Below are positions 16,401 through 49,400 of a stretch of DNA of 64,000 nucleotides, one piece after another. A program made the position numbers and the translations under genes. Positions within the stretch are counted from its first letter, which is position 1. The number at the start of each line of letters is the position of its first letter. The notes under the pieces were generated by a model, which saw only the letters and a list, made by a program, of their open reading frames with translations, was not told where the DNA came from and did no database searches. The stretch comes from Siphonodentalium dalli (lineage: Eukaryota; Mollusca; Scaphopoda; Gadilida; Siphonodentaliidae). Location: assembly GCA_032622095.1 (NCBI GenBank), contig CP136063.1, positions 267,151,426-267,215,425 of the forward strand, written 5' to 3'.

Positions 16401-19400
16401 TACTCACAGTACTGTGGCAAAAGGAATTGTCATTTTTTTTCTGTCCAAAGTTCAAGACATGAACCTAGCCCGAACACACTCAAGTACATGGTTTTATTTT
16501 CACCACAGGAGAACTGGTTGGCGATGGCACTGTCTGGGAACATTTTTTTAAATGTTCTGCTCATTGTACTACAGCTGTTGTAACTGTAGTGCTTAGATAC
16601 CAATGTTACTGTAGCAGACCACAATAATTCAGCTTTTAGAATGTAAATATAACCCCAGCTGGCATTCACAGCCACAATACAGTCAATGGCTGATTGCGGT
16701 GGAGGGTAAACGCTTTCGTGGCGAGATGTCGCCTTTGTTTTAAAAACTTTGGCGTTTCAAATATGGGTGAACATGCACTTAAATCCCACATGAAAGGGGC
16801 AAAACACGTGACAGCTTCTCGAAATATACAATCGACGGCCACATTAGTCATTATCAAGCTTCATGCCTCCATCGCCTGCAAGTTCTAACACTGTCCCTCG
16901 CCCTCGGGAGGTGTCCGCATCTGACAGAGACTGTATATCAACAAACAATGAAACAAGTACGGGTGCTCGACTAGGTCCTATTGCAGTTTCATCTGAGGTA
17001 TGCTTTGGCGAATTCATTGAATTTTCTAGGTCATAATATTGCATCATGTATGGGCAGACAACTCACGTATTTACGCATACTCAGTTACAGACATTTCTAT
17101 TGGCTGAATAGGGAAGTCAATTGGGAATTGGCCAATAAGAAACGTGTTAACATAATGTCACAACTCTGCTAGACTTCTGACCTCGTGTTACCGTAAAACC
17201 GGTGAAATTAGAAGGAATTAATTTCCCAACTCGCAGCGATCGTTTCAATAAAATTTAATAGAGCATTTTCCAGGGTATTCAAGGAGTGGGATTGGATTCA
17301 AGGGTTATCCAGGGCCCTTGAAAATAAATAATTTATTTCCAGGGTTTTCCAGGAGTTTCCAGGACCCGCGGGAACCCTGCCTAGAGGGTGAATTTGGTGA
17401 TGCTAGCCCGCTATGCGGGTTAGCATCACTAAATTCACCCTCTGGGGACCTCATTCTGCAAATGACAGGCACACTATTTCAAGGCTTGAGCGGGGGGGGA
17501 TTTAAATACAAACCTCCAGAGTATGTAGCCTGTCCAGTATAACTGAGTTATCAAACACACGGAAGACATGCTTGGAATGTACGTGGCTCTCCATCGTGAA
17601 GATATTCCCCGTGGATAACAGCTCCACCTGATACCGTAGAACCAATCCATGGAAGTGGTCTGATTCATATAAAATGTTTGCCTCGAGGACTTTAATTGGT
17701 CGCACTTTGCATTGTGATGAGTTTTTAAGTAAATATTGCACAGTAAGTCTCATAAACGAGTGGTATAAAGTAAGGTGCGCATCAGGAACTTTCGTAGATT
17801 TGTCGAGATGGTGGTAGTCGTTTTGCCAGTAGTTATTGATGGCAACCAAATCTGAAAATATGATATAACATGTATTGCTGCAATACACAGTGACAATATT
17901 CAAATACCATTACAGTTTTATCTATCTGTCACGCGAGACTCACACAATCGGTCTTCACTTCAATGCACCAGAGATCACAAGGGAACCACACCTACATACC
18001 GTATTATTACGTTATAGAGATACTAATATCCAATCACAGACAATGAATTAGGCAATAAAACGTGTAAAGAACATGAAATTCGTGGATAATTAATTTAGAC
18101 TCTGTGCGCTGATACCCAGTCTGTGTTAACCCTTTCATGACTGGAGCCATGCTTGTGCAGCATTAGAGATCCTGTGCCAGTGCATCCTCTTATATATGCG
18201 AGTCTCCCACAGGGATCCTTGCATATATTAGAGAATGCATTGGCTTACAAGGTCAATGCAAATATTGTTAGGCCAATGTATTCTCTTATATATGTGAGGC
18301 TACCTATGGGAGACTCACATATGCATTGGCACAGGGTTTTCGCAAAATTTCAGGAAGGTCCAGTCATGGAATACTGATGGTGATTCTATCGTATTCATTG
18401 CTCAGAACGCTTGTGGTCTTTCTCAAAATGATGTCACATCGCTACATTAATCATTTGTTGTAAAATATAGAGATCCGGGGGGGCTGGGAACACCACAGAA
18501 TACAAGGGTAAACCTGTCTTCGGTAACATGGACAAAGGTGATCATTATCTAGGTACACATTCCGAAGCGCCACTTGGACAATTCCATAGTCAGTAAAATT
18601 AAAAACAGGAGCATAATAGAGGTATGCCTGGTGTTTTGAAATTTGGAAAATATAGGTATACATATGACAGAGTATGCGTACCAGTATCGTAGAATCACGC
18701 ACTATCAGAAATGAACTAGTTATACGTAGAGTATTAAAATATTCTTAAGTTTCATGATTGTCCCATACCGGTAGTTTCAGTAAAACATGGGAGCGTGGTA
18801 CATAGTTAGGTGTTACGAATTTAGAAATTAGGAACGTAAGCATAGGCCGCGAGTTTTCGAAAGGGTTAATTTTGAAATTTATAGTTATGTACATGAGTAA
18901 GCAGTTGTGGAATGTAAGTGTAGGTGTAAGTCTGAAGTAAAATGCTAAATTTCACTGGAATCGTCGTCAGTTATGTACCTGGTGATGGAGTGTTTAAACA
19001 ACAGACCACCGCTTTTCGACACTTTTTTCATTTCGATTTGACAGTATTATCTTGGTACTACTAATAGTGAGTTCTGATTCGCGCTACTGCTATGGAATCC
19101 AACGATATGGGAAATAGAAAGTCTGCGACAAGTAATCATACATCTATATATGGGACTTTTAGTCATTTATCTATCTCTCCAGTATCCCAGCCAGATAGCT
19201 TGCTGAATTAGAACAGATGTATAATAATTGGTGCTTTCAAACTGCATGTTTTGCATTTTGGTTAAGATTTGGTTTAGAACAATGCTCTAATTTGGCCTCA
19301 GTCAGTCTCAGAAACAAGTGGCATAAAGTTAAGTATGCATCGAGGAGACAAGAACCTTGGTTGACTTATCGAGATGGTGGTAGTCGTTTTGCCAGTAGTT

Positions 19401-22400: not shown

Positions 22401-25400
22401 TCTGGGGACCTCATTCTGAAGATGACAGACACACTAGTTGCAGGTTTGATAGCACCCATCTCCAATGAAGCACTGAATTTCATGTTAGAACAATTCTTTA
22501 GACAGCACAAGAGGAATAACTCTATATTTTGCAGCACTCACCAAACTGATGCAGGATGAGCATATAGAAGTAATAAAATATACACTGGGCTGTGATTGTA
22601 CAATAGCCTTATCTAGTTCATATATGGACATATAGAACATCACTCTTCGAGGTGAAATAGCCACAAACACAGACATTAACCCTTTTTATATACTTAACCC
22701 TTTACCCAACAGAAGGGCCCTGTGCCAATGCATTCTCTTATATATGCGAGTCGACCATAGGTCGCCTCGCATATATAAGAGAATGCATTGGCTTAACACA
22801 TTAAAAATTATAAAATTGTTAAAGAATGTAAGAAAAATGGTAAAAAGTGTTAAAAAAAGATTTTTTTAGGCCAATACATTCTCTTATATATGCGAGGCGA
22901 CCTATGGTCGACTCGCATATATAAGAGAATGCATTGGCACAGGGCATAACTGTAACTATCACAATGTGGTCAATGAGCCGGTTCCAATGATATCCATATT
23001 TGTATGGTTCTATTGAGACAGACCGAAGATATTTTAGGCTGTTGAAGCTTTATTTGGCCGGTTTTGGCCGTTTTGTTGGGTAAAGGGTTAATACTCAATG
23101 ATGAGTAGTTCCTTTAGGAAATGATCAGATAATAAGTTCAAATTGACAATAGGTTGTCATTTTTTCTAACAGCTGTTTGTTGAACTTATTATCTGAACAT
23201 TTCCCACTGAATATTAATCGATCATTATGCTCTTGTTTTATCTGTTTTTCTGCCTGGAGTCTGATTTTATTTCCTTAAAACCCCTCTGAATGAACAATAG
23301 ACCATTCCAATATATTCTTTTATAACTGAGTGGGAGAATCAATTTAGAATATAAAGGGTTAGAGTGATGTGCAGCACTCTGTTAGGATAATTAAATGCGA
23401 ATTGAAAACATTCTTGTTCAAAATAGTTACCTCATTTTTCGTACAGTAATGCCCTAAGTAATCGACCCCTTAACCACAGCAGAATTATGGGTAACTTTTC
23501 AGGATTTAGTCGGAAATATGGCTTGTTGCCATTCATCAGAAAGCTCTCCCCGAGCTGCGCTTGTGCAGCATTAAAGATCCTGTGCCAGTATATTCTCTTA
23601 TATATGCGAGTCTCCCACAAGGAGCCTCGCATATATAAGAGAATGCATTATGCTTACAAGGTCAAGGTAAATATGTTAGGCCAATGTATTCTCTTATATA
23701 AGAGAATGCATTGATACAGAGTTATCGCAACAATTTCGGAAGCTCCAGTCACAGAAGGTTTAAATATGCACTAACTTTCACTGGCAGAATCATTTCTATT
23801 TGTTTATCTGTGATTTTACTAGAACAGTACTGTGCATAGTTCAGATGTTGTGTTTTTTGTAATGGTACCATTCATGTGGTTGGAAGTTTTGGCTATATAA
23901 GATGAACGCTACAGTCACAGGTGCTATAGCACACATCAAAATCGAAGGTCTGATCATGCTTTGTTTAGCAACAGTTCTACTTACCATAAGTTTGCTGAGA
24001 TCATTGGGTTTGAAGTCATTCGGGGAACACCCGCACCAGTCGACAATGTGTTTATACTGACACTTACAGCCCTGTTTACGTTTCCAGTTCGTCACATGAA
24101 GGTTGTTGTCAACCAGCTTATCACAGAATTTGCTATTCAGTAGTAATGTATGAAAGAAAGACTGAAAAAGAAAAAAGAAGGAAATCAAAAACTTTACCTC
24201 TTTGGTCTTAAAATTTAAAGTTTTACCTTTTTCCTTAACCCTTTACCCAACAGAAGGGCCCTGTGCCAATGCATTCTCTTATAGGTCGCCTCGCATATAT
24301 AAGAGAATGCATTGGCTTAACACATTAAAAATTATAAAATTGTTAAAGAATGTAAGAAAAAATGGTAAAAAGTGTTTTTAGGCCAATGCATTCTCTTATA
24401 TATGCGAGGCGACCTATGGTCGACTCGCATATATAAGAGAATGCATTGGCACAGGGCATAACTGTAACTATCACAATGTGGTCAAGGAGCCGGTTCCAAT
24501 GATATCCATATTTGTATGGTTCTATTGAGACAAACCGAAGATATTTTAGGCTGTTGAAGCTTTATTTGGCCGGTTTTGGCCGGTTTGTTGGGTAAAGGGT
24601 TAAATTACAAATTTTTAGGATTCTTTGATTTTAAATATCTTCTTTCGACATGTATGTTCCAAATTACCGCCGCTCCGGACCTTGCTATCCAACTCTAAAT
24701 TTTGCCAAGAACACGAGGAACACAGTATCTGCATGTAATTTGGACCCTGACCCTAATATATTCCCCCTTCTTTCATATACTTTGCAGACACTCTCCTCTT
24801 GTTCTTGACATCCATCACAGTTTTGCACCACCAATATTATATGGGTAAACTTACATGACAAATATGTTTAAGCCATTTTTCTTTCTTACTAAAATCTCTG
24901 TTGACTAACAAAAAGGCCTCTGTGGTCAGCCTGCCAGAGAATTACTCTTACTTGGTCTCTGTCATTCTAGTATGCTAGTTTGGTGTTACTTAACCTGGAC
25001 TCGTGTTACCTGGTCAGACATCCACTTACCTGTATCGGTGACACATAAAAACAAAGGAAATACTGTAAATTCATTTTAACCCATTTTTTGCTAAATACTC
25101 ATTTATGAGAAGTTCCCTTAGGAAATGTTCAGAAAATAAGAACAATAGGTAATTTGTTGAACTTATTATCTAAACATTTCCCACCAATGAATACAAATTA
25201 TTCTGCTCTTGTATTATCTGTTTTGTTGTCTGTCATCTGCTTTTATTACCTGAACACACCTCCAAGTGAATAATAGACAATTCCAATGTATACTTTTACA
25301 ACTGAATGGGAGAATCCATTTAGTATAGAAAGGGTTAACCCTTTACCCAACAGAAGGGCCCTGTGCCAATGCATTCTCTTATATATGCGAGTCGACCATA

Positions 25401-28400
25401 GGTCGCCTCGCATATATAAGAGAATGCATTGGCTTAACACATTTTTTAGGCCAATGCATTCTCTTATATATGCGAGGCGACCTATGGTCGACTCGCATAT
25501 ATAAGAGAATGCATTGGCACAGGGCATAACTGTAACCATCACAATGTGGTCAAGGAGCCGGTTCCAATGATATCCATATTTGTATGGTGTTATTGAGACA
25601 GACCGAAGATATTTTAGGCTGTTGAAGCTTTATTTGGCCGGTTTTGGCCGTTTTGTTGGGTAAAGGGTTTAGAGAGGTGTTTATAGAAAATGTGCTAGCA
25701 TCAAACATGAAACTTCAATTACAAGAGTGATTAGGATGAAAATATTCAATTATTAAAGGTGCTCTCTCCCATTTGATGGTCCACATATCATCAGATTCAA
25801 CAACCTATGGTCGACTCGCATATATAAGAGAATGCATTGGCACAGGGCCCTTCTGTTGGGTAAAGGGTTAATTTGTGATTTCGAGGTAAAGCAAAACCAA
25901 GAAATCAAGAGCCACAGAAATATTTGACATAGATTTTGATAAAATGGTTGTAATAAATCATGAAAGGTGAGACAAAATGTAATAATTGATATGACATAGT
26001 CTATCGATTATCTATATTAACCCTTTACCCAACAAACCAGCCAAAACCGGCCAAATAAAGCTTCAACAGCCTAAAATATCTTCGGTCTGTCGCAATAGAA
26101 CCATACAAATATGGATATCATTGGAACCGGCTCATTGACCACATTGTGATGGTTACAGTTATGCCCTGTGCCAATGCATTCTCTTATATATGCGAGTCGA
26201 CCATAGGTCGCCTCGCATATATAAGAGAATGCATTGGCCTAAAAAAAATCTTTTTCTTACATTCTTTAACAATTTTATAATTTTTAATGTGTTAAGCCAA
26301 TGCATTCTCTTATATATGCGAGGCGACCTATGATCGACTCGCATATATAAGAGAATGCATTGGCACAGGGCCCTTCTGTTGGGTAAAGGGTTAATTAAAT
26401 GCAAATAATGTTCAAGGAATATTTAACTTAATAAAAGCTAATGATTTTGTCTAGTGCAGGTTACATAAAACAATATTATAACTATCACATCGGTGTGAGA
26501 TATAAAGCCAGTAGCTATTAGCACTCTGAGTAACCCAAGCCCTGTCAACTGAAATTTTGTGAAAACCCTGTGCCAATGCATTTCTTATGTATGCGAGTCA
26601 CCCATAGGAAGCCTTGCATATATAAGAGAATACATTGGCTAACAATATTTATATTTACATTGACCTTGTAAATCAGTGCACTCTCTTATATATAAGAGGC
26701 TCCCGTTCTGATATATAAGAGAATACAGTGGCCTTACAATATTTACATTGACCTTGTTAGCCAATGCATTCTCTTATATATGCGAGGCTCCCTATGGGAG
26801 TGCATCTTTAATGCTGCACCAGCGCAGCTCCCCTCATGAAAGGGTAAACATAATCTCACCTCAACGGGTAGGAGAGTATATTTATAAATCTGCTTCAATC
26901 CAGTGATGAGTTCATCGTTGCCGCTGACTGCGTAATCACAGAAGTCTCTATGGAGGCCGATCCAGTCGCTCCCGCCATCGAGAATAATTCCTGTGCTGAT
27001 ATTCCTCTTCCCAATCCTCCATAAATGGTTATCACACTCATAGAATATCTGGTCGAGGCCCTGCTTCAAAACAAACCTGAGACGAGGGGAAAATCCACAT
27101 GATTATCCTCAGTATGGTTACCCCTTTCATAGCAACCATCAAGGGTGCTTATACATAAGGCAGGTGAATGACGTCATAGCAACCATCAATGGTGCTTATA
27201 CATAAGGCAGGTGAATGACGTCATAGCAACCATCAATGGTGCTTATACATAAGGCAGGTGAATGACGTCATAGCAACCATCAAGGGTGCTTATACATAAG
27301 GCAGGTGAATGACGTCATAGTAACCATCAAGGGTGCTTATACATAAGGCAGGTGAATGACGTCATAGCAACCATCAATGGTGCTTATACATAAGGCAGGT
27401 GAATGACGTCATAGCAACCATCAATGGTGCTTATACATAAGGCAGGTGAATGACGGCATAGCAACCATCAAGGGTGCTTATACATAAGGCAGGTGAATGA
27501 CGTCATAGTAACCATCAAGGGTGCTTATACATAAGGCAGGTGAATGACGTCATAGCAACCATCAAGGGTGCTTATACATAAGGCAGGTGAATGACGTCAT
27601 AGCAACCATCAAGGGTGCTTATACATAAGGCAGGTGAATGACGTCATAGCAACCATCAAGGGTGCTTATACATAAGGCAGGTGAATGACGTCATATAATT
27701 TGTTCTATACCCATCAGTGATTTTTCGAGATCGTGGGTATAGATTTTGGAGAAATTGTCACGTGACTTCCGGTTAGCAACCGTGTGGAGATCGCAAAAAC
27801 GCAGAACTGGAAATGAAGCATCGCGATAAAACTAACTACTTCACAACTTACGAAGAATTCACATGGTCAGCTTAATGAAAACGAAAAATGAAGAAGTCTT
27901 GACGATAATCCAGACAAGATTTTACAATCCACGACACGTCTTGTCAATTTGGCATGTCGTCTCCGTCGTGACACATCATGTGTGGTTGCTCCACTACGTG
28001 TCACGTACGATTCATATTAGTGGGAGCTGCGCTGATGTCAGTGCATTCTGTTATATATGCCATTGGTTTATATATGTGCCAAGTTTTAAAAATATTTACC
28101 AGAAAATGACAGAATACAGGCTCGGACAAATTTCCAGATGGATGGATGCATGCCTGGATGCATGGATGGACAAGGGTCATTACTATAGTCCTCCGTTAGA
28201 ATGTCAGGGGACAATTACCAAACCAATTCTGGCATCTGGAATACTGGGTAACTGCAGACACTCTATATTGGCCAAAATTCAGCATCCGAAAATAGAGTTT
28301 TCATAATGAGGGTGTAAGGGTAGTGAGTTGAGAGTGGTCTTTCGGCATGTATCAATACCAGAAAGAGAGAACAAAAGACTAAAATCCAGTGAGCCAAAAC

Positions 28401-31400
28401 TATAACAAAAGTCACTAAAACAGTTATTTCTGAAGTATATATAAGAATCGATGTTCCAAATATCCCTCTGTATAATTTTTGGCAAAAATTATATTCATTT
28501 GACAAAATAAATGACTTGTGTGGATCCTGGATTTTGAATATAGAGAATATATGTGGATATTGAATATATAGAATATATACGTATAAAACACAGATATATA
28601 CACACCCATCACCCATAAATGTTTTAATATGACATACCTTGATGTATCACTACCATGAGACTTGAGGAAGTTCATACCCTTGTATATCGTCAGGTATTCC
28701 ACCAATGTGTCCACTGTCCTGAAAGCACACACACCATATGTTAAAATCACAAAACAGACTTAACCATTTCATGATGAGAGCTGGCCTGGTGCACTCTCTT
28801 ATAGCCTTGCATATATAGAGAATACACTGGCTTACAAGGTCATGGTAAATGTTTATGCCAATGTATTCTCTTATATATGCGAGGCTCCCTATGGAAGACT
28901 CACATATATAAGAGAATGCATCGGCACAGGGTTTTCGCAAAAGCTCCATTCATGGAAGGGCTAAATCTTGTATTAATTATATAGATAATATCTCCACTTT
29001 TCTAGATACAATTATTATCCCATGAGGGATTAAACTATTTCACATTTCTACAAATTCAAATATTTTGTCATCCCAAATGAGATAATTCTAATCTAATTTG
29101 ATAAGATAACAATTGCTGCCACTACATCACTGAAGCTGAATTATGATATAAATATCTCACTGGAAATTCCCAGACAAAACTTTTTATCATATGCTTGACT
29201 ATAGAACAGCAGAAAACAAGAGGTGTTCACTCGAGTGCTAGCATACCCCCACCGTGGCATATTCAACCCGCATTATCCGTAAACCCAACAAAAAAGATTT
29301 TTAACTTTAAATAAAAATTTGGATTAATAATTTTGATATTGGTTCATATTTGTTCGAATGATTGCAGAAACCCAAAAAAGGGTAGAAAATGATTATGAAA
29401 CGCAACCTTACCATCTAAGATGGCTTTTGTCGAGTGTGATAGCATCCAAAAAAAAGAAAGTTTCAAATATCTATGATCAAAACTGTAGGAGGAGTTGATT
29501 ACACCATGAAGGTACCCTCATACAGAAAAACAGAAAATTATAAAAAAAAATTCAAAGTCGAAAGGCCCATAACTTTGGGAAAAATCATTGGATCAAACTC
29601 AAATTCGAACTTGACCTGTATTTTGATATGAATGACCCACAAAAAAAACATAATTTCCAATTAAACAATCCAAACTTGAGTTATCATCCGGAAACCAAAG
29701 AAAAAACAAGTAAAATTGAATTTTCTAAGTCGAAAAGCCCATAACTCTGAGAAAAATCATCGGATCAAACTCAAATTCGAACTTGACCTGTATTTTGATA
29801 TCATTGACTCACACAAAAACGGAATTTTCAATTGAACAGTCCAAACTTAGTTATCATCTGGAAACCCCCAAAAAAAGAAGAAAATTGAATTTTCTAAGTC
29901 GAAAAAATTCCATTACTCTAGAAAAAATTCGAAATCAACCTGTATCTTGATATGACTGATCTACAAAAAAACGGTATTTGCAATTAAAGGATCCAAACTT
30001 GAGATATCATCCGGAAACCGAAAAAGTCGAGTATGAGGCGTAACTTTAAAAAAAAAAGTCGGACCGAACCGCAATTAGCATCATGCGGAGAGGCCGTCCT
30101 AATTATGGAGATTGCATACAAAACATTATTGAAATTGGTTCATAGTTGTTCGAGTTATGAGGTCGGACGGACGGTACGACGGACGGACGGCTCGACACAC
30201 GGAGGGAGAAAGCGTGACGGACAGACGCAGTCAATCCAGTATACCCCTTTCGAAGAAGCCACAGTGAAATACAGTACTGTTAATTCAATGTAGCTTTCGT
30301 TATTTCACTGAAGTTTGTCGGCAGTTTACGTGAGTGCCACTTAATATGCCCAGTACATAATGGACAAAAAAGTTTTGTACTATTAAAAGTGAAAATGCTG
30401 CATAATTTAGAAATTTTGAGCATTAAAGACATATTATGGACTTGTTCGGGTGCGTGAAATTAATAAGTTAGTACTAAGGCGCTATACCAACCTGGGGAAT
30501 GTAGACTTCTACTAACATTTCTGAAAATTTCAAAGAAATAGACCGTACCACTCCATAGAAAACATCATCTAAACTACGCTCAATTGTAAATATTTACATC
30601 TCGAATCGGGATGCAACTATCAGCGATAATCTAACACAAATGATTTCGCCATCGAGAGTCATTGCAATTAATTAATATATAAGAATGACGGTGTGTATCG
30701 TCAATTATGGATTAATATTCATAACAAATAACTACTTTGAGCAAGATTATTCTCAATTTCTATTTGATCTGTTGTTTGAGTACCTGAAACATCTCATTCG
30801 TGTCTAGAAAGAAATTTTCACTCGCAGCTGCTATTCCGCACTACATCATGACATCATATTTTTGCCTCATTCGGTATATCTTTGCGCATTATTTTAACAG
30901 AACAGGCTGGTCGTGTTGTAGCTTTAAGAATGTGTTAGGAATAACCAAGTGTTTATATAGTCTGGTTCATATAAGAAATAAACGGCGGTTTCAATGTGGT
31001 CATGGGATTTTGACCGCGAGAAAAAATCAGCAAACTGCATGAACCCCGAAGGGGTTCATGCAGAGTTTGCTGATTTTTTTATCGCGGTCAAAACCCATGA
31101 CCACGTTGAATCCGCCGTTTATTATTTATATTTATATACTTAAATTCATTATGAACTAGGATTGTCTGTCTTTCCCACTATTTATTCATCTATTTAAATG
31201 AACGCATGCATGGAGTTCAGTTCAGAAAGTGCGAATCCTCATTTTTTGGAAAACCAAACATTTTGAGAATCCGTTCTTGAAGAACAGAAAAAAACGCAAT
31301 TTCACAGCTTAGTATTACACATATGACAAACTGTCTTGTTTAGCTAGTAACTAATGTAGACGTGTTGATTTCAAGAATGATAACTGAAACTAACAATTGA

Positions 31401-34400
31401 GTTTCGGCTGTGGATAAGAAATCGACAACCCGCCGTTCTACCATAATGATATATTTGTGAGGTTGGGGGAATATTTGTAGCGGTAAGGAAAATGATAAGT
31501 AACGGGATTTTTGAACATCAACGTTCAGTAACACCGGGCAACAACACTGATTATAGACCAAAATAAATTTCTTGCCAAATTCGGACGTACTATATAGATA
31601 CTCAAGCAGTCGGCAATGTCCGACAATCCCCGGTCATTTCCGGGACCAATGTGTTCATAAACTTATGAACGACATTGGAAGTGACGTCACGTTGCGTTCA
31701 TAGGTTTATGAACGCATTGAATACGGGGGCGTGTCTACCGTAACGCTATGTGGGAATCGGAGGAGATATTAGGTGTATGTAAATATAACATAATAACCAA
31801 GTGTTTATATAGTCTGGTTCATAACATAATAACCAAGTGTTTATATGGTCTGGTTCATAACATAATAACCAAGTGTTTATATAGTCTGGTTCATAACATA
31901 CTGGTATAGAAAATATACTAAACACAACATTAGAATGTCCTCTCGTGAGATGCAAGTATTGTTTATTGTTATGTATTTATGTTAGATTACTTGTGTGTAC
32001 ATATTTTATCGCACGTGTTGTGCCAGTATTAACTTTGTAAACCATTTTAGAGCACACCTGTGGTTTTACAGTTATATAAAATAAATTATTATTATTAAAA
32101 TTATTATTATTTTCACTTGGCTAGCACCTCATAAATATAATCCTCCACAACTCACTTGGGGAGAAAAACCGTAATACTCATTCTATATTCTCACCTATAC
32201 CGTAATACTCATTCTATATTCTCACCTATATTTCATAATATTTTATGGCTGTGCATTAACCCTTTACCCAACAAACCGGCCAAAAACGCCCAAATAAAGC
32301 TGCAACAGCCTAAATTATCTTGGGTATGTCTCAATAAAACCATACAAATATGGATATCATTGGAACCGGCTCATTGACCACATTGTGATGGTTACAGTTA
32401 TGCCCTGTGCCAATGCATTCTCTTATATATGCGAGTCGACCATAGGTCGCCTCGCATATATAAGAGAATGCATTGGCCTAAACAAAATCTTTTTTTAACA
32501 CTTTTTACCATTTTTTCTTACATTCTTTAACAATTTTATAATTTTTAATGTGTTAAGCCAATGCATTCTCTTATATATGTGAGGCGACCTATGGTCGACT
32601 CGCATATATAAGAGAATGCATTGGCACAGGGCGGTTCTGTTGGGTAAAGGGTTAATAATAATCTAATAAGATAAGTTGGAATGCTCTTAATATCTTCTAT
32701 GCCTGATGAAGTTTCAATGAAAAATCAAAATGGAATCGGGAGTACCATTGTCTGCAATATTAAATACAGGGACCCACACATACATGTATGTTACTGCCAT
32801 TAGAGCAATGGCATGGAATAGCAGAAGAGGCAGAAGTGTTATCCTTCTGCAATCGCAAGACTGAGTCTAACTAACATAACTATCATACAGTAACACAGCA
32901 GGCCCTTATATTCCCCTAAATGAAAGAAAAGTGGAGAACTCGTACTTAGGGATAATACTTATCTTTTTAATGTTTATTGCGTGTTCTTTGGTAAAATTTT
33001 GTCGAAACCCGTTTTATGATTTTGGACAAGTGGTGCAAGACCAAATATTTACTGTTTTCTGTTTTCCCAATAAATTATTTACCTGATATACTCACTTAAT
33101 AGGGTAATCACTCTCATTATTTACCTGATATACTCACTTAATAGGGTAATCACTCTCATTATTTACCTGATATACTCACTTAATAGGGTAATCACTCTCA
33201 TTATTTACCTGATATACTCACTTAATAGGGTAATCACTCCCTGATATACTCACTTAATAGGGTAATCACTCCCTGATATACTCACTTAATAGGGTAATCA
33301 CTCCCTGATATACTCACTTAATAGGGTAATCACTCCCTGATATACTCACTTAATAGGGTAATCACTCCCTCATATACTCACTTAATAGGGTAATCACTCC
33401 CTGATATACTCACTTAATAGGGTAATCACTCTCTATTTACCTGATATACTCCTTAATAGGGTAATCACTCCCTGATATACTCACTTAATAGGGTGATCAC
33501 TCTCTATTTACCTGATATACTCACTTAATAGGGTAATCACTCTCTATTTACCTGATATACTCACTTAATAGGGTAATCACTCTCACTCTGATATACTCAC
33601 TTAATAGGGTAATCACTCTCTATTTACCTGATATACTCACTTAATAGGGTAATCACTCACTCTGATATACTCACTTAATAGGGTAATCACTCTATATTTA
33701 CCTGATATACTCACTTAATAGGGTAATCACTCTCACTATTTACCTGATATACTCACTTAATAGGGTAATCACTCTCACTATTTACCTGATATACTCACTT
33801 AATAGGGTAATCACTCTCATTATTTACCTGATATACTCACTTAATAGGGTAATCACACCTGATATACTCACTTAATAGGGTAATCACTCTCTATTTACCT
33901 GATATACTCACTTAATAGGGTAATCACACCTGATATACTCACTTAATAGGGTAATCACTCTCTATTTACCTGATATACTCACTTAATAGGGTAATCACTC
34001 TCACCTGATCACTTAATAGGGTAATCACTCTCTATTTACCTGATATACTCACTTAATAGGGTAATCACTCCCTGATATACTCACTTAATAGGGTAATCAC
34101 TCTATATTTACCTGATATACTCACTTAATAGGGTAATCACACCTGATATACTCACTTAATAGGGTAATCACTCTCTATTTACCTGATATACTCACTTAAT
34201 AGGGTAATCACTCTCTATTTACCTGATATACTCACTTAATAGGGTAATCACTCCCTGATATACTCACTTAATAGGGTAATCACTCTCTATTTACCTAATA
34301 TACTCACTTAATAGGGTAATCACTCTCTATTTACCTGATATACTCACTTAATATGGTAATCACTCTCTATTTACCTGATATCCTCACTTAATATGGTAAT

Positions 34401-37400
34401 CACTCTCTATTTACCTGATATACTCACTTAATAGGGTAATCACTCTCACTCTGATATACTCACTTAATAGGGTAATCACTCTCTATTTACCTGATATACT
34501 CACTTAATAGGGTAATCACTCTCACTCTGATATACTCACTTAATAGGGTAATCACTCTCTATTTACCTGATATACTCACTTAATAGGATAATCACACCTG
34601 ATATACTCACTTAATAGGGTAATCACTCTCTATTTACCTGATATACTCACTTAATAGGGTAATCACTCCCTGATATACTCACTTAATATGGTAATCACTC
34701 TCTATTTACCTGATATACTCACTTAATAGGGTAATCACTCTCACTATTTACCTGATATACTCACTTTATAGGGTAATCACTCTCTATTTACCTGATATAC
34801 TCACTTAATAGGGTAATCACTCCCTGATATACTCACTTAATAGGGTAATCACTCTCTATTTATCTGATATACTCACTTAATAGGGTAATCACTCTCACTA
34901 TTTACCTGATATACTCACTTTATAGGGTAATCACTCTCTATTTACCTGATATACTCACTTAATAGGGTAATCACACCTGATATACTCACTTAATAGGGTA
35001 ATCACTCTCTATTTACCTGATATACTCACTTAATAGGGTAATCACTCTATTTACCTGATATACTCACTTAATAGGGTAATCACTCTCACTCTGATATACT
35101 CACTTAATAGGGTAATCACTCTCTATTTACCTGATATACTCACTTAATAGGGTAATCACTCTCACTCTGATATACTCACTTAATAGGGTAATCACTCTCT
35201 ATTTACCTGATATACTCACTTAATAGGGTAATCACTCTCACTCTGATATACTCACTTAATAGGGTAATCACTCTCTATTTACCTGATATACTCACTTAAT
35301 AGGGTAATCACTCTCACTATTTACCTGATATACTCACTTTATAGGGTAATCACTCTCACTCTGATATACTCACTTAATAGGGTAATCACTCTCTATTTAC
35401 CTGATATACTCACTTAATAGGGTAATCACTCTCACTATTTACCTGATATACTCACTTTATAGGGTAATCACTCTCACCTGATATACTCACTTAATAGGGT
35501 AATCACTCTCACTATTTACCTGATATACTCACTTAATAGGGTAATCACTCTCATTATTTACCTGATATACTCACTTAATAGGGTAATCACACCTGATATA
35601 CTCACTTAATAGGGTAATCACTCTCTATTTACCTGATATACTCACTTAATAGGGTAATCACACCTGATATACTCACTTAATAGGGTAATCACTCTCATTA
35701 TTTACCTGATATACTCACTTAATAGGGTAATCACTCTCATTATTTACCTGATATACTCACTTAATAGGGTAATCACTCTCTATTTACCTGATATACTCAC
35801 TTAATAGGGTAATCACTCTCTATTTACCTGATATACTCACTTAATAGGGTAATCACACCTGATATACTCACTTAATAGGGTAATCACTCTCTATTTACCT
35901 GATATACTCACTTAATAGGGTAATCACACCTGATATACTCACTTAATAGGGTAATCACTCTCATTATTTACCTGATATACTCACTTAATAGGGTAATCAC
36001 TCTCTATTTACCTGATATACTCACTTAATAGGGTAATCACTCTCTATTTACCTGATATACTCACTTAATAGGGTAATCACTCTCTATTTACCTGATATAC
36101 TCACTTAATAGGGTAATCACTCTCTATTTACCTGATATACTCACTTAATAGGGTAATCACTCTCTATTTACCTGATATACTCACTTAATAGGGTAATCAC
36201 TCCCTGATATACTCACTTAATAGGGTAATCACTCTCTATTTACCTGATATCCTCACTTAATAGGGTAATCACTCTCTATTTACCTGATATACTCACTTAA
36301 TAGGGTAATCACTCTCTATTTACCTGATATACTCACTTAATAGGGTAATCACTCTCACCTGATATACTCACTTAATAGGGTAATCACTCTCTATTTACCT
36401 GATATACTCACTTAATAGGGTAATCACTCTCACCTGATATACTCACTTAATAGGGTAATCACTCTCACCTGATATACTCACTTAATAGGGTAATCACTCT
36501 CACCTGATATACTCACTTAACACGGTAATCACACCTGATATACTCACTTAATAGGGTAATCACTCTCACCTGATATACTCACTTAATAGGGTAATCACTC
36601 TCACCTGATATACTCACTTAATAGGGTAATCACTCCTGATATACTCACTTAATAGGGTAATCACACCTGATATACTCACTTAATAGGGTAATCACTCTCA
36701 CACCTGATATACTCACTTAATAGGGTAATCACTCTCACCTGATAAACTCACTTAATAGGGTAATCACTCTCACCTGATATACTCACTTAATAGGGTAATC
36801 ACACCTGATATACTCACTTAATAGGGTAATCACTCTCACCTGATATACTCACTTAATAGGGTAATCACACCTGATATACTCACTTAATAGGGTAATCACA
36901 CCTGACATACTCACTTAATAGGGTAATCACACCTGATATACTCACTTAATAGGGTAATCACTCTCTATTTACCTGATATACTCACTTAATTGGGTAATCA
37001 CTCTCACCTGATATACTCACTTAATAGGGTAATCACTCCCTATTTACCTGATATACTCACTTAATAGGGTAATCACTCTCACCTGATATACTCACTTAAT
37101 AGGGTAATCACACCTGACATACTCACTTAATAGGGTAATCACACCTGATATACTCACTTAATAGGGTAATCACTCTCATGATTTACCTGATATACTCACT
37201 TAATAGGGTAATCACTCTCACCTGATATACTCACTTAATAGGGTAATCACTCCCTATTTACCTGATATACTCACTTAATAGGGTAATCACTCTCACCTGA
37301 TATACTCACTTAATAGGGTAATCTCACCTGATATACTCACTTAATAGGGTAATCACTCTCTATTTACCTGATATACTCACTTAATAGGGTAATCACTCTC

Positions 37401-40400
37401 ACCTGATATACTCACTTAATAGGGTAATCACTCTCATTATTTACCTGATATACTCACTTAATAGGGTAATCACTCTCTATTTACCTGATATACTCACTTA
37501 ATAGGGTAATCACTCTCATTATCACCTGATATACTCACTTAATAGGGTAATCACTCTCATTATTTACCTGATATACTCACTTAATAGGGTAATCACTCTC
37601 ATTATTTACCTGATATACTCACTTAATAGGGTAATCACTCTCACCTGATAACTCACTTAATAGGGTAATCACTCTCACTAAGATTAACATAATAATCCCA
37701 GTGCCAATCCTTCTTCTCAAGCAGCTCCTTGATGAAGTACAGGTGTGCTTGGAGTAAACTGGCACCACCCCATATGGTAGCGAATCTGTGCTTGGTGAGA
37801 TATACATTCGGAAGACTTGTTTCTAGAGGTAGCAGCTCCCTATACATATATTCCTGCCTCTGTAATACAATTCAGATAGACATAGACATATTTAACCTTT
37901 TCAAGATGGAAGCTGCGCAGCATTTAAGATACTTTGCCAGTGTATTTTCTTATAGGGAGCCTCACAAATATAAGAGAATGCACCAGTTTACAAGGTCAAG
38001 GTTAATATTGTTAGGCAAATGTATTCTCTTAAATATGAGAGGCTCCCTATGGGAGACTCGCATATATAAGAGAATGCATTGGCACATGGTTTTCATGAAA
38101 TTTCAGGAAGCTCCAGTCATAAAAGTGTTAACCCTTTCAGTGCCAGGGGCCGATCTCATCGGGCCTAATTTACGGTCTGTAAAATCGGCCCTAAAAAAAT
38201 AATTTTTTTTTTTTTTTTTATTTTTTTTAGATTTAAAATTTTAAAAAAATTATTAAATTTGTAAAAAATTGTAAAAAATAATAACAAATGATGAAAAATT
38301 GTTAGGCCAATCCATTCTCTTATATATTCGAGGCGACCTATGGTCGACTCGCATATATAAGAGAATGCATTGGCACAGGGTATATGGGTTGATACAAAAA
38401 TCGGACCTGGCACTCAAAGCGTTAATGCACTATCAATATACATGCGCAGGATATGGCAAACATAAAGAAAACAAAACTGTAATGCAACTCCAATCAAAAT
38501 CAAAATATGAAGAGGGTAACACTTAATTCAGAGGCCAAGCAAGATATCACATATACAGTAATACCCTAAATAATCGACTCCTTAACCACAGCAGAATTAT
38601 GGGTAACTTTTCAGGATTTAGTCGAAAATATGTCTTGTTGCCATTCATTGGAAAGCTCTCAGTGAGAGCTTTCCGATGAATGGCAATAGGCCATATTTCC
38701 GACTAAATCCTGAAAAGTTGCCCATAATTCTGCTGGGGTTAAGGAGTTGATTATTTAGGGCATTACTGTAGGTATGGCCAAATGAATGTGTGAAGCTCCG
38801 AAACATGTCACATATATATTAGTTTACAAACACCTTTGTGAGGAGGGAGGAGCAACATTGAGTATTCATGATGATCTTTGTAATCGTAGATCGATAACAT
38901 GATACAGTCCATGAAATTTCTTTGAATTTCGGAAAAATTGGACAATTCCCATCTAAAGTAGAGGTCACCCTGAGCAACCATATGATGTTTGGTGACGGTC
39001 GGATGAGGGATGTGGCATGTAGGGTGTACCAAGGGATTTAGTCATGAAAAGAGTAAAATCCAAGAGATGTTTCTCAATGAAAATTCATAAAAATTTGATA
39101 GCTCCCATCTAGTGGTCATCCTGAAGAGCCATATGTAATTTGGTGATCATCGGATGAGGGATGTGGGCAAGTTGAGCTAACAAGTGTATATCAAAATGGC
39201 CTGTCATTGGTTTGGAGGAATGTATAGGTAATATAAGCAGACAACAGATAATAAAAGTGCAGAAGTCATCTTATTAATTGGAGGAAAATGTTCAGGTAAC
39301 AAGTTCAACAAATGTCCTATGTCGTTAGATGAATTAATTATCTGAACATTTCCAAAGGGATAACTACTCATCAATGAGTGTTTAGTATAGAGAGAGCTAA
39401 ACTTACCTTATCAACATGTAGAAAATACATATGATCTTGGTGGTATATAGCTCGTAATAATCGTTTCACCTGACGCACTTGTCTGCCATTCAATGTAAGA
39501 ACAAATACTATTTTGACAGGCGTTTTTCCACTCGCTCCTCCACTTTTAAGAGGGGCGTCATTCTTCACTCTCTCTGGAAAAGAAATAATGTAATGTTTAA
39601 TTTATCGTAAAATATTATGAGATAGCTCTCGACTATCCAGCATTAGAATTTATTACAGCCTAAATTAGCAACACATCTGGTGATTCAGAACCGATAACCT
39701 ATGTCTGAGCTATATGAGTGGACTGACAAAAAAAACCCCAGATTTCCAGCTAAAACAATAAGGATAACTCCAGAATGGAAAATGCAAACAATGTCATTTG
39801 CATCTCATTTGAAAGCAGTCATGATGAGGATCCTACATACCAAATTCCATTCATCTATCTGGAGAGGTGGATAGACAGACGGATAGACAGATGGGTAAAG
39901 TCCATCCAGTATACCCCCCATGGTGGGGGTATAATTACATAAAGGTGGGGGTATAATTACATAAAGGTGGGGTATAATTACATAAAGGTGGGGTATAATT
40001 ACATAAAGGTGGGGGTATAATTACATAAAGGTGGGGGTATAATTACATAAAGGTGGGGTATAATTACATAAAGGTGGGGTATAATTACATAAAGGTGGGG
40101 TATAATTACATAAAGGTGGGGGTATAATTACATAAAGGTGGGGGTATAATTACATGAAGGTGGGGTATAATTACATGAAGGTGGGGGTATAATTACATGA
40201 AGGTGGGGGTATAATTACATAAAGGTGGGGTATAATTACATAAAGGTGGGGTATAATTACATAAAGGTGGGGTATAATTACATAAAGGTGGGGGTATAAT
40301 TACATAAAGGTGGGGGTATAATTACATAAAGGTGGGGTATAATTACATAAAGGTGGGGTATAATTACATAAAGGTGGGGGTATAATTACATAAAGGTGGG

Positions 40401-43400
40401 GGTATAATTACATAAAGGTGGGGTATAATTACATAAAGGTGGGGTATAATTACATAAAGGTGGGGTATAATTACATAAAGGTGTGGGTATAATTAGATAA
40501 AGGTGGGGGTATAATTACATAAAGGTGGGGGTATAATTACATGAAGGTGGGGTATAATTACATGAAGGTGGGGGTATAATTACATGAAGGTGGGGGTATA
40601 ATTACATAAAGGTGGGGGTATAATTACATGAAGGTGGGGTTATAATTAGATAAAGGTGGGGGTATAATTACATGAAGGTGGGGGTATAATTACATGAAGG
40701 TGGGGGTATAATTACATGAAGGTGGGGTATAATTACATGAAGGTGGGGGTATAATTACATGAAGGTGGGGGTATAATTACATGAAGGTGGGGGTATAATT
40801 ACATGAAGGTGGGGGTATAATTCATGAAGGTGGGGGTATAATTACATGAAGGTGGGGGTATAATTACATGAAGGTGGGGGTATAATTTGCTAATGATTAT
40901 TTCTTGAGTTCTAGATGTCTATTACATATACATCTCAGTTAGAGAGTGGGAAATAAATTTAAAAATTACCTCCTCGGAATAGAATTCATGCTAAAATTAG
41001 ATTTCTGGATTTCCCCAGTCGCTGTGCTAAATTTAGGAAGCGGAATATGGTATTGGGGACAACACTATCGGATATAGATAACACAAACCAGCCATCCAAA
41101 ACTGTGGATTAGACAATAAATTATCACTTGAGGTAAAACATTTATATATATTTTAGAATGCTGAAAGGAATGGAATATGCAAAGAACATACCGGCAACAC
41201 CAGTTTGAAACACGCGCTGAGTGAGGAAGCCTCCACATGTGTGCGTGACATTTCCCGGACACTTCGCCGCACAAGCGCCCACAGTTGACTTCCCATGTTT
41301 CCCGTAGCTTTGACCACACCAGCATTCTTTGGTGAATTGGAGGCCTGCATACTGGTAGCCTGAAATAATTATAGAAAATAAAATGAAACAAGAGCTGGGC
41401 TGTCGCCTGGTGCATACCCCCATGTGGCATATCGCCCATAGGGTGGGCATAGAAGTCAGAGGACTTGAAATAGTGAGGCTGTCATTTGCAGAATGAGGTT
41501 CCCAGAGGGTGAATTTAGTGATGCTATCCCGCACAGTGGACTAGCATCACCAAATTCACCCTCTGAGAACCTCATTCTGCTAAGGCCTAAGCAGAATGAG
41601 GTCCCCAGAGGGTGAATTTGGTGATGCTAGCCCGCTGTGCGGGATAGCATCACTAAATTCACCCTCTGGGGACCTCATTCTGCAAATGACAGGCTCACCA
41701 TTTCAAGGCTTGATTGAATATCTGCAGTCCAGGGACCAACCAAGCTAGTGGGTGACAACTTGGGTGACATATTCTCCCTAAAATATGCCACTTCTCCCTA
41801 TTTTTGTCCCAGGGAGAAGTGACGTCTCTCATATACATGTACCAGTATTCATACACTGCATGTCCCAATGCCATGTTTAAAGTGTATTTAAAGATTTAAA
41901 GGTACTCAATCCGATCAGAGGGTCCTATATTACTATTTCTTTGGCTTTGGGGGTAAAAAATATTTGATTCGAGTCGAGGAACCCACCCATCAAAGCTCAG
42001 AGTGATATTGATTTTTGAAATCTATTAATTTTCGGATTTGTAGCCCACAAGGTGACAGAACACGTGATCAAAACGGACAAATTGTGGGTGTAAGATGGAT
42101 AACTCTAAAATCAAGTGCTTACTATTAACAATAATAACCACTTGATTTTAGAGATATCCATCTTACACCCGCAATTTGTCCGTTTTGATCACGTGTTCTG
42201 TCACCTTGTGGGCTACATATCTGAAATTTAATAGATTTCAAAAATCGATATCTAATCACTCTGAGCTTTGATGGGTGGGTTCCTCGACTCGAATCAAATA
42301 TTTTTTACCCCCAAAGCCAAAGAAATAGTAATATAGGACTCTCTGATCGGATTGAGTACCTTTAATGTTATAATGATGTTCTTATTCTCTATAATGGTTC
42401 TATAAATGTGCTCTTATGCTGTATAATTCTTATTGAACCATAGAATTGTTAACCCTTTACCCAACAGAAGGGCCCTGTGCCAATGCATTCTCTTATATAT
42501 GCGAGTCGACCTATGGTCGACTCGCATATATAAGAGAATGCATTGGCACAGGGCATAACTGTAACTATCACAATGTGGTCCAATGATATCCATATTTGTA
42601 TGGTTCTATTGAGACAGACCGAAGATATTTTAGGCTGTTGAAGCTTTATTTGGCCGGTTTTGGCCGGTTTGTTGGGTAAAGGGTAAAGGTGTAAATTGAA
42701 CTTCAGCCATGGCTACCTCTCCCTGATAACAGTTCACTTCTCTCTAATAACCAAACAGGGAGAAGTTACTTCTCCCAATTTTAAACCTCTAGCCAGGTCA
42801 CTGATCGCCACCCAATTCCATTGAGATCTGATGTCTGTTGAAGAAAAATAGCCCTAGAATGAATAATGTAAACAAAACCTTTGAATTAAGACTTCTTTGG
42901 AGGTCCTCATTACGGTATACATTCATAACAAATTTCAATGAGATCCGATAACCTGTGACTGAGATATTTGTATCCACGGAAAAAATCTACAGTTCAAGAT
43001 AAACATAGGAGAATAGCTCTAGAATGGAAATGCAACAACACCAGTTGACACTTCATTGAAAGCCCTAATCATGATGATCATCCATATAGCAGGCTAGCAT
43101 CACTAAATTCACCCTCTGGGGACCTCATACAAAATTTCATCGAGATCCCATAGCCCATGTCTGAGATACTCAGGGAGATGGAAAAAATATCAACATTTCC
43201 AGATAAACAAAGATGAATAACTCTAGAACGGAAATCCTGAACAGAACAATTGAACACTTCTCTGAATGTCCTTACAGTTGAACATCTATACCAAATGTTA
43301 TGGGAGACTCGCATATATACCGTAAGAGAATTCATTAACCCTTTACCCAACAAACCGGCCAAATAAAGCTTCAACAGCCTAAAATATCTTTGGTCTGTCT

Positions 43401-46400: not shown

Positions 46401-49400
46401 GCTGGTAGGGAAATTCTATGCATTTCTCTTTCATTCATGTGACATATAACTGAGAGAATCACCTCACATATATAACAGAATGCATTGGCCTAATAAATTT
46501 TATATTATTTTTTATAATTGTTAAAAAATGTAAGACAAAATGAAAAAAATGAAAACCGATTGTTAAAGAATGTAAGAAATAATAATAAAAAAAATGATAA
46601 AATTGTAAAAGAATGTAAGAAAAAAATGATAAAATTGTTAAAGATTATAAGAAAAAAATGATGAAAATTGTTATAGAATGTAAGAATTTTTTTTAAATTA
46701 TTTTTAAAGAATATAAGAAAAATTTCTAAAAAAAATTATAAAAATTGTTAAAGAATGTAAGAAAAATTGATAAAAAATTGTTAGGACAATGCATTCTCTT
46801 ATATATGTAAGGCGACCTATGGTTGACTCACATATATAAGATAATGCATTGGCACATGATCTTTAATGATTCATCAGCGCAGCTCCCGTCATGAAAGGAT
46901 TAAAGTAACTCATCATTTTCAGACCTCAAAGTAAACCTAGAAAGCACATCTTTTTGTAATGTTCTGAGAATAAATGTGCATGAAATAACCATATACAGAC
47001 TATACTTTCTTTTGAAAGTCCTAATAATTTGACAGAATTTGTCAGCAGTTTTCAACAATCTGCACAGCGCTCTTTATTAGAAACAATTCTGTTAGAAGAC
47101 GGTAAATCTAACAAAGGACACTCGGTTTTGTTAAAAGATGAAGAGAAAAGGTTTAAAGGAACACTCTTTTTCTTCCTAAAGTAGCCTAAAAGCAATATGC
47201 GATAAAATCAATAATTATTGGGTTAAATTTAAAAACCGGATCATTTTATGAGTTGCTTTATGGGAATAATATTAACAATTATACAGTTCTGTTATAGGCC
47301 AAAAAGACTATACTGGACCCTGTGTCAAGTTAGAATACTGGGAAAAAAACAAACTTCAAAATCTCTTGTATCAAGAAGTCACTTGAAAACGAGAAAATAT
47401 TGGAAACCAAGTTTCATGCATATGATCCAAAGTTCTCAGTAATCACTAATGTGCACATAAATCTGTCGCTATTTAAAGAAGAACTAATCAAGTTTTCCAT
47501 TAAAGAATGGAAAAATTCCCATGGTGAGATGCATTATTAATGGATATTTATCACAGAATAAATCTCTTAGCATCAGGGGTCAGGAATGCATATGGAGTTG
47601 ATCATAACCCAGTTCCACATTAAATATAATTACCCCATTGTGTGTTAAAGTCAAGCACCTAAAATGCTTTCTCAGGGCAAGCCTGCAAATAGTGTGTCCG
47701 TCATTTGCAGAATGATGTCACCAGAGGGTGAATTTAGTGATGCTATCCCACATAGTGGGCTATCATCACCAAACTCTGGGAACCTCATTCTGCTTAGGCC
47801 TCAACTGCTATGGGAGACCTGGGATCTGATTGAAGTTCCCCAGTTGAAGTTGGTGACCCATCAGTCACCTTGATTATGCATTTTATCTTCTGAAAATTGG
47901 GTGATATACAAACTGAACAGATAAAGTGACAAAAAACAGTGTTAATTTGAGACTATGGATACTTCCATTAGCAGAATGAGGTCCCCAGAGGGTGAATTTG
48001 GTGATGCTGGCCTCCTTAGTGGGATAGTGTCACTATATTCACACTCTGGGGGACCCCATTCTGCAAATGACAGACACACTATTTGAAGGCTTGTCTGAGG
48101 GTGAGAAATCTGAGGGTAATTATCACAAAAAAGAGGTCAAGAACATTATAACAACATGTTTTTATGATGAACTAAGGCCAAGCCTTGAAATAGTGTGTCT
48201 GTCATTTGCAGAATGAGGTCCCCAGAGGGTGAATTTAGTGATGCTACCCCGCTATGCGGGGTAGCATCACCAAATTCACCCTCTGGGGACTTCTTTCTGC
48301 TTACAACTCAACAGAATGAGGTCCCCAGAGGGTGAATTTGGTGATGCTAGCCCGCTATGCGGGGTAGCATCACTAAATTCACCCTCTGGGGACCTCATTC
48401 TGCAAATGACAGACACACTATTTCAAGGCTTGTGAACTAAGGCACAGGAATAATAGCATGCATGATCGCTACATATAATATCTCATACAAAGAACTACAT
48501 CAGCATATTAATTCCACAATAGTTTACAGATATATATCAACTAGTACTTACAGTAGTAATGCCCTAAATAACCCTTAACCACAGCAGAATTATGGTTAAC
48601 TTTTCAGGATTTAGTCGGAAATATGGCTTGTTGCCATTCATCGGAAAGCTCTCACTGAGAGCTTTCCGATGAATGGCAACAGCATTTAGTCGGAAATATG
48701 GCTTGTTGCCATTCATCGGAAAGCTCTCACTGAGAGCTTTCCGATGAATGTCAACAAGCCATATTTCCGACTAAATCCTGAAAAGTTAACCATAATTCTG
48801 CTGTGGTTAAGGAGTCGATTATTTAGGGCATTTCTGTATATGTACATGTACATCTACTTATATTGTGTATATAGAGTGGCACAATATACATGTAAACACA
48901 CATACTCAAATCTGCCTGGTATGTTTTTGTAGGCATTTGGATACAGACAGCTATAATGTGCAAAAAAACAACTGCAAAAATTATTATAAAATGCATAAGT
49001 ACAACAGCTAATACTTTGTGAGAAGTAAAAACTCTGTAGTTCGGTACCATACTTCTCCTGTAAATAGCTATTATCTCCCAAGAATTAATCATACAGGTAT
49101 TATCTCCCAAGAATCAATCATACAGGTATTATCTCCCAAGAATCAATCATACAGGTATTATCTCCCAAGAATCAATCATACAGGTATTATCTCCCAAGAA
49201 TCAATCATACAGGTATTATCTCCCAAGAATCAATCATACAGGTATTATCTCCCAAGAATCAATCATACAGGTATTATCTCCCAAGAATCAATCATACAGG
49301 TATTATCTCCCAAGAATCAATCATACAGGTATTATCTCCCAAGAATCAATCATACAGGTATTATCTCCCAAGAATCAATCATACAGGTATTATCTCCCAA

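What the first reader, a model, noticed from the sequence alone, without database searches (positions are those of the whole stretch)
33080..37660. About 120 tandem copies of a gene's own 5' splice site
Sequence shows: the array unit is the last ~20 nt of xylosyltransferase exon 6 plus the first ~20 nt of intron 6, so nearly every unit carries an intact AA|GTGAGT donor in its coding context and correct orientation. The authentic donor is the first copy and differs slightly (GTGAGTTATC against GTGAGTATATC). Using any later copy would hit TGA one codon after Lys393. Inference: either the outermost donor wins by position, or some transcripts are truncated; the array could also act as a local U1 snRNP sink and protect this 50-kb transcript from early polyadenylation. 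I know of no described minisatellite made of exon-intron junctions on this scale.
Basis: partly seen in the sequence, partly recalled or inferred. Interest (0 to 1): 0.87.

Follow-up and report, generated by a model that had tools for sequence, protein, structure and literature searches.

The report
Giant array of splice-donor copies
In an animal sugar-transferase gene the end of one exon and the start of the next intron have been copied head to tail about 124 times, a very large case of a junction-duplicating minisatellite, a kind already described in lancelets and found at other genes of this genome too.

Summary
On the minus strand of a xylosyltransferase (XYLT) gene, 33076-37678 holds about 124 tandem copies of the gene's own exon-intron junction; AA|GTGAGT occurs 120 times. 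The exon ends at 37657: splicing there joins the frame cleanly to an exon at 28718, and any later donor meets TGA at 37655.

It is not alone. In 191 other exon matches from three families, 8 donor-side arrays of at least 3 copies were found (all in kinesins; 1.98 expected, P=0.0006), plus lower-copy cases in all three. But duplicated sequence is no commoner at donors than in nearby intron, and acceptor edges are hit almost as often (13 against 16 loci), so tolerance explains much.

It matches lancelet "mirages" and resembles the human IFI6 donor minisatellite. Most likely it is a passenger minisatellite seeded on the junction: the exon-proximal donor is used and the array leaves with the 8.9-kb intron. 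A U1-platform or rheostat role is untested. Organism unidentified; no transcripts or reads.

The parts
37657..37859 (-).
   Evidence: Branch domain PF02485, 6ej7 match E 4.2e-18, continuous spliced frame
37645..37656 (-). Intron side of the authentic 5' splice site, TAA|GTGAGTTATCAG; U1 duplex -5.7 kcal/mol
   Evidence: sequence, duplex energy
33076..37678 (-). Minisatellite of about 124 junction units (30-42 nt, mode 40): 20-22 nt exon tail plus intron head; 120 AA|GTGAGT sites and 101 CAG|GT sites
28719..37656 (-). The intron, 8,938 nt; the array fills its first half; AATAAA at 32978, 31967, 31186, 31123 and ATTAAA at 32971, 32549, none inside the array
28638..28718 (-). Next coding exon, 81 nt, starts G|ACA GTG (completes Lys, phase 2)
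26860..27076 (-). Following coding exon
23985..24161 (-). Following coding exon (Branch positions 200-247)
39407..39573 (-). Preceding coding exon (ends HVDK, phase 0)
41142..41540 (-). Open frame with a WSC domain, taken as an upstream part of the same gene
17508..17849 (-). Xylo_C match, taken as a downstream part of the gene (second piece at 10339-10500)
   Evidence: converted from G000:C3 coordinates

Best explanation
A mirage-type minisatellite. A short stretch that straddles this exon's 5' splice site was duplicated in place and then expanded by the usual tandem-repeat turnover to about 124 units. Because each new copy lies downstream of the intact exon-proximal junction, the duplication is tolerated: the spliceosome defines the 203-nt exon by the donor next to it, and the array is removed with the 8.9-kb intron. 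Later donors, if used, give an immediate TGA and presumably mRNA decay. Shown: the array, its unit, the reading frame, the stop, the low U1 complementarity of the authentic donor, the recurrence of junction duplications elsewhere in the genome. Inferred: order of events, use of the first donor in most transcripts, decay of the rest, absence of a role.
For: The unit is the local junction, with no excess elsewhere in the genome. Its distal end continues into ordinary intron (GTAAATAAT|TTATTGGG) and its proximal end into exon, as expected of duplication in situ. Linker variants are ordered along the array: identity at lag 2 is 0.355 and at lag 4 0.286, against maxima of 0.264 and 0.261 in 1000 shuffles; lags 1, 3, 5 and 6 stay within the shuffled range. 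That is typical of local expansion. The first unit's donor sequence is unique in the array. Frame and homology need the first donor. Junction duplications recur at kinesin, myosin and CCT exons. In lancelets RT-PCR suggested that mirages do not disturb splicing (PMC3087553, passage).
Against: The authentic donor has the lowest U1 complementarity of five donors of the gene (-5.7 against -6.8 to -10.7) and is outscored by 118 GTGAGTAT copies (-7.6), 64 CAG|GTAAAT sites (-8.3) and 18 CAG|GTGAGA sites (-11.1); only two GTGAGG copies score lower (-5.1) and one equals it. Predicted accessibility does not favour it clearly over the other AA|GTGAGT copies: 0.052, against mean 0.052 and median 0.031 of 122 others, higher than 68% of them. 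Clustering of array starts just inside exons hints at more than random seeding.
Confidence: 0.75

Rival explanations
1. Unproductive-splicing rheostat: stronger downstream donors compete with the weak authentic one, and array length or U1/SR protein levels set how much XYLT mRNA is productive; the rest is degraded after the TGA.
For: A weak donor first, with 118 stronger AA|GTGAGT-type copies and 101 CAG|GT donors behind it; the nearest, 12 nt downstream, is CAG|GTGAGA at -11.1 kcal/mol. Every alternative ends at the same TGA. IFI6 repeat units do serve as extra donors (PMC4526556, passage).
Against: Exon length grows by 34, 76, 118, 159 nt and so on with each AA|GTGAGT copy, so exon definition (general knowledge) should silence all but the first few. 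The CAG|GT sites are predicted to be less accessible (mean 0.010 for 101 sites, against 0.052 for the AA|GTGAGT class). Lancelet mirages reportedly leave splicing intact. No transcript data.
Confidence: 0.12
2. U1 platform: the array binds many U1 snRNPs and protects the long intron from premature polyadenylation or strengthens exon definition.
For: About 220 donor-like sites in 4.6 kb; 4 AATAAA and 2 ATTAAA lie past the array and none within it.
Against: Six such hexamers in an AT-rich intron look unremarkable (no expectation was computed). Arrays holding GTGAGTAT are hardly commoner genome-wide than arrays of the reversed word (5,497 against 5,185 matches; GTAAGTAT 7,330 against 5,730; counts dominated by long arrays), so there is no clear sign of selection for donor arrays as such.
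Confidence: 0.05
3. Donor-directed duplication: some process linked to splicing or transcription duplicates DNA at 5' splice sites in this genome, so junction arrays are seeded there more often than elsewhere.
For: In 140 loci (kinesin and myosin), 7 of 29 array starts fell in the last 60 nt of the exon match (4.4% expected, P=2e-4). Of 37 arrays in all 191 loci, 8 span the donor edge against 1.98 expected (P=0.0006), and 3 the acceptor edge against 1.96 (P=0.31).
Against: By a measure without TRF, 33-mers around the match's 3' end are duplicated in 11-15 of 191 loci, no more than in nearby intron (10-20 of 188-191), and any duplication at the edge is about as common on the acceptor side (13 of 191) as on the donor side (16 of 191). 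Selection against arrays that reach deep into exons could push visible starts to the exon's edge. All 8 arrays are in kinesins and two of them are paralogues.
Confidence: 0.08
4. Assembly artefact: repeat number or the array itself is wrong.
For: No reads are available to check; long arrays are error-prone.
Against: Units differ in linkers and substitutions in an ordered pattern; the contig is chromosome-sized (301 Mb); similar, smaller arrays occur at other genes.
Confidence: 0.03

Closest known systems
Lancelet 'mirages' (Adh3, globins BflGb6/BflGb9, troponin C; PGBD5 duplications likened to them)
   Same: Minisatellite-like tandem duplication of an exon-intron boundary, at donor or acceptor, many units keeping AG/GT signals; the cluster's boundary unit escapes homogenisation (PMC3087553, PMC3902484; passages)
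   Different: Here about 124 units, against 6 and 3 units for the two BflGb6 haplotypes and one duplicate in BflGb9 in the passages read (Adh3 copy number not seen); organism here not identified as a lancelet; here junction duplications were sampled at many exons of three families
Human IFI6 (6-16, G1P3) splice-donor minisatellite
   Same: A minisatellite that provides extra splice donors; two downstream units are used (as cited in PMC4526556, passage; Turri 1995 itself not held)
   Different: Different gene; use of later units unknown here, and here they would truncate the protein
[quoted passage not shown]
   Same: Duplication of sequence carrying splice signals
   Different: Here an intron is lengthened; no new intron is seen

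Membership tests
Mirage (lancelet-type junction minisatellite) | Tandem repeats that span an exon-intron boundary | tested here: met
   Unit = exon tail + intron head
Mirage (lancelet-type junction minisatellite) | Many repeat units keep splice signals | tested here: met
   120 AA|GTGAGT, 101 CAG|GT
Mirage (lancelet-type junction minisatellite) | Boundary unit distinct from the homogenised interior | tested here: met
   First unit's donor GTGAGTTATC is unique; linkers ordered along the array
Mirage (lancelet-type junction minisatellite) | Normal splicing not disturbed | not testable with these tools
   No transcripts; the frame is compatible
Mirage (lancelet-type junction minisatellite) | Length polymorphism and somatic instability (reported for Adh3) | not testable with these tools
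   One assembly only
Mirage (lancelet-type junction minisatellite) | Occurs in a cephalochordate | tested here: inconclusive
   No GFP-family match (PF01353), but nothing rang in the controls either; the organism stays unidentified
IFI6-type donor minisatellite | Later repeat units used as splice donors in mRNA | not testable with these tools
   No transcripts

The most novel reading that the evidence does not exclude
In this genome 5' splice sites are themselves hot spots of tandem duplication, through a process tied to transcription or splicing, and the resulting donor arrays, of which XYLT's 124 copies is the largest seen, tune how much of each transcript is spliced productively.
Probability: 0.06. 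Interest if true: 0.88.

Novelty: new member of a known kind. Interest (0 to 1): 0.55.

Why it matters
It offers a natural test of how a spliceosome chooses among more than a hundred near-identical donors when the correct one is among the weakest and every wrong choice gives the same truncated product. It also suggests that junction-duplicating minisatellites, described gene by gene in lancelets, can be a common feature of a genome, relevant to intron growth, intron gain and gene annotation.

Tried and rejected
Recursive splicing (CAG|GT as a zero-length exon): set aside on inspection, because the unit has no pyrimidine tract before CAG (AAGTGAGTATATCAG). Structural protection of the first donor: local folding gives it the same mean accessibility as the other AA|GTGAGT copies; the CAG|GT class is less accessible. 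Transposon or dispersed family: no excess of the unit outside this locus. Enrichment of donor-like words in arrays genome-wide: not clear, counts are close to the reversed-word controls and dominated by long arrays. Rfam: no match in the window at gathering scores. A second XYLT copy: none found with this exon. Other XYLT junctions duplicated: none of the 9 other exon edges tested (best 22 of 33). Naming the organism: no GFP, mollusc haemocyanin or GH6 match (all without a ringing control); a muscle myosin exon matched several animals' chains almost equally (species of the chains recalled); given up. Paper searches and passages on competing donors and on lancelet genomes gave little of use.

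Rows dropped before counts: kinesin survey used 100 of 123 listed matches (left out: several near-identical paralogues at C7:207-210 Mb and C6:54 Mb, and weak or neighbouring matches); myosin 40 of 85 (mostly near-identical cluster copies left out); CCT 51 of 53 (two long uninterrupted frames left out). The 'exon edge' in the survey is the edge of the family match, not an annotated splice site; junctions were read by eye only in the loci printed. Some near-identical pairs remain in the counts (L054/L057, L178/L179).

Full report
WHAT IS THERE. Tandem Repeats Finder reports 33076-37676, period 40, 124.0 copies. Read on the gene's (minus) strand, the exon ends ...TTAGTGAGAGTGATTACCCTATTAA|GTGAGTTATCAG and is followed by units GAGAGTGATTACCCTATTAA|GTGAGTATATCAG plus a variable linker. 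Anchors give 124 units, most of 40, 42, 31, 35 or 32 nt. In 33040-37700 AAGTGAGT occurs 120 times and GTGAGT 121 times; the rest of the window (59.4 kb) has 12 GTGAGT on this strand and 5 on the other. In the whole genome the 20-nt core with up to 2 mismatches has 123 minus-strand matches (capped list; every minus-strand match listed is in this array) and 5 plus-strand ones, against 12 and 10 for the reversed pattern.

THE GENE. The exon matches the Branch domain (PF02485, E 4e-10) and solved xylosyltransferase 1 (6ej7, E 4.2e-18; the human source of that entry is recalled). A WSC open frame lies upstream and Xylo_C pieces downstream. The exon has no second match in the genome. Splice boundaries read from the sequence and joined in a script give one continuous frame over five exons: 39573-39407, 37859-37657, 28718-28638, 27076-26860, 24161-23985. 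The junction of interest reads [32 protein letters not shown]. The donor exon ends in phase 2 (AA) and the next exon supplies G. The next-but-one exon also matches xylosyltransferase 1 (E 2.1e-24). Reading past the donor meets TGA at 37655, so all later donors give the same truncation.

There are 101 CAG|GT sites besides the AA|GTGAGT sites. With an unmodified 11-nt U1 5' end, duplex energies are: authentic donor -5.7 kcal/mol; 118 copies (TAA| or AAA|GTGAGTAT) -7.6; one other copy -5.7; two GTGAGG copies -5.1; 64 CAG|GTAAAT sites -8.3; 18 CAG|GTGAGA sites -11.1; 18 CAG|GTGTGA sites -6.7. The first CAG|GTGAGA lies only 12 nt past the authentic donor. The other four donors tested in the gene give -6.8 to -10.7. 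The authentic donor is therefore the weakest of the five gene donors tested and weaker than nearly all its copies. Local folding does not set it apart from them (0.052 unpaired, against mean 0.052 and median 0.031 for 122 others, higher than 68% of these), but the CAG|GT sites are predicted to be less open (mean 0.010, 101 sites), which may offset their stronger pairing. Successive AA|GTGAGT copies would lengthen the 203-nt exon by 34, 76, 118, 159, 199 nt and so on. In established models of exon definition that disfavours distant copies (general knowledge, not tested).

HOW THE ARRAY IS BUILT. At the far end the last unit runs on into ordinary intron, and at the near end the first unit is the exon itself. 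Linker types are clustered along the array, with excess identity at lags 2 and 4 (0.355 and 0.286; maxima of 1000 shuffles 0.264 and 0.261) and none beyond the shuffled range at lags 1, 3, 5 and 6. In 121 indel-free cores, the 14 exon-derived columns hold 12 substitutions and the 13 intron-derived ones 7, so there is no sign that the exon half is conserved more. This is the pattern of a minisatellite grown in place.

IS IT ALONE? I took 191 exon matches in the same genome: 100 of 123 kinesin, 40 of 85 myosin, 51 of 53 CCT. TRF arrays of at least 3 copies and period 10 or more numbered 37; 8 span the 3' (donor) edge of the match (L034, L037, L054, L056, L057, L063, L071, L083; L054 and L057 are paralogues) and 3 the 5' (acceptor) edge (L082, L086, L134). 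With random placement 1.98 and 1.96 are expected (P=0.0006 and 0.31, 5000 placements). By family the donor count is kinesin 8 of 100, myosin 0 of 40, CCT 0 of 51, so the two smaller samples did not repeat the high-copy result. L082's array stops just before the acceptor AG and does not truly span it. By eye, the donor-side units are the exon tail plus its own donor, for instance GTAGATTTAGCAG|GTAACTATGACTATGAACCTA in 17.3 copies up to the end of the stretch in L056. Lower-copy donor duplications: L067, L078, L093, L111, L163, L170, L175, L181 (myosin L111 and four CCT loci among them). CCT L167 has 10 copies of a 33-mer, 7 of 9 spacings 37-39 nt, which TRF broke up. Acceptor junction copies occur too, for example L149 and L097. 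The XYLT array is the largest that I saw of this class.

RESULTS THAT TEMPER THIS. A TRF-free measure (does a 33-mer have a copy of at least 27/33 elsewhere in the locus?) gives 11-15 of 191 for 33-mers starting from 20 nt before to 20 nt after the exon match's 3' end, 10-20 of 188-191 for starts 30-310 nt past it, and 1-4 of 191 for starts 150-90 nt before it, in the exon. Donors are therefore not richer in duplications than introns; they are merely not spared. On the acceptor side, starts within 100 nt upstream of the match give 4-9 of 191. Loci with any duplication at the edge number 16 of 191 on the donor side and 13 of 191 on the acceptor side (the latter include L082 and a few with a copy some way off). 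Array starts do cluster in the last 60 nt of the exon match: 7 of 29 in the 140 kinesin and myosin loci, P=2e-4. Selection against arrays that reach further into exons may cause part of that. Arrays that repeat GTGAGTAT or GTAAGTAT are abundant genome-wide, but not much more so than for the reversed words (5,497 against 5,185; 7,330 against 5,730).

WHAT IS KNOWN. [quoted passage not shown] It states that the Adh3 data and its own RT-PCR suggest no interference with splicing, that the mechanism is unclear, and that they might create introns. PMC3902484 (passage) adds troponin C and likens PGBD5 duplications to mirages. PMC4526556 (passage) cites Turri 1995 for IFI6, where two downstream repeat units act as donors; PMC3618361 (passage) cites the same work for interference with splicing. 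The primary papers (Turri 1995; Canestro 2002) are not held, so I cannot say what copy numbers they report. I saw nothing of this size in the listings, which cover open-licence papers only.

VERDICT. Observation confirmed; a very large member of a known kind, in an organism that I could not identify (2.23 Gb in 9 contigs). Most likely a tolerated passenger, with the exon-proximal donor in use. What a specialist would find surprising is the size, the stronger decoys behind a weak authentic donor, and the recurrence at other genes. Transcript evidence would decide between passenger and regulator.

Noticed in passing
window 49069-53654: A 29-bp minisatellite of about 158 copies, 98% matches, 4.6 kb, as long as the XYLT array
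   Followed up: no
window 27127-27695: A 47-bp minisatellite of about 12 copies that ends 51 nt upstream of the exon that starts at 27076; it does not include the acceptor junction
   Followed up: partly
window 2911-4215, 15346-16224, 39922-40887: Further large tandem arrays (45 bp x 29; 174 bp x 5; 22 bp x 45) in the same window: with the other three, six arrays over 500 bp make up about a fifth of it
   Followed up: no
window 41488-41683 and 48209-48403; similar words in L175 and L181: A dispersed repeat with AGAATGAGGTCCCC...GGGTGAATTTAGTGATGCTA and its inverted form, looks like a short inverted-repeat element
   Followed up: no
G000 C1:20205261-20208138 and C1:25802594 onward: A 33-bp satellite unit GTAAGTATATATCGATAG... 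present in long arrays at two or more places of C1
   Followed up: no
G000 C4:274.2-275.5 Mb, also C4:172, 221, 288-291 Mb: Cluster of very similar myosin head exons, several with equal scores, suggesting a recent expansion of muscle-type myosin genes
   Followed up: no
L134 (myosin), coding-strand 237-693: An acceptor-side array: units of CAG|GTCTGGTCGATGCCGGGTTAGTCC, the first codons of the exon, repeated about 15 times by TRF upstream of and into the real exon start
   Followed up: partly
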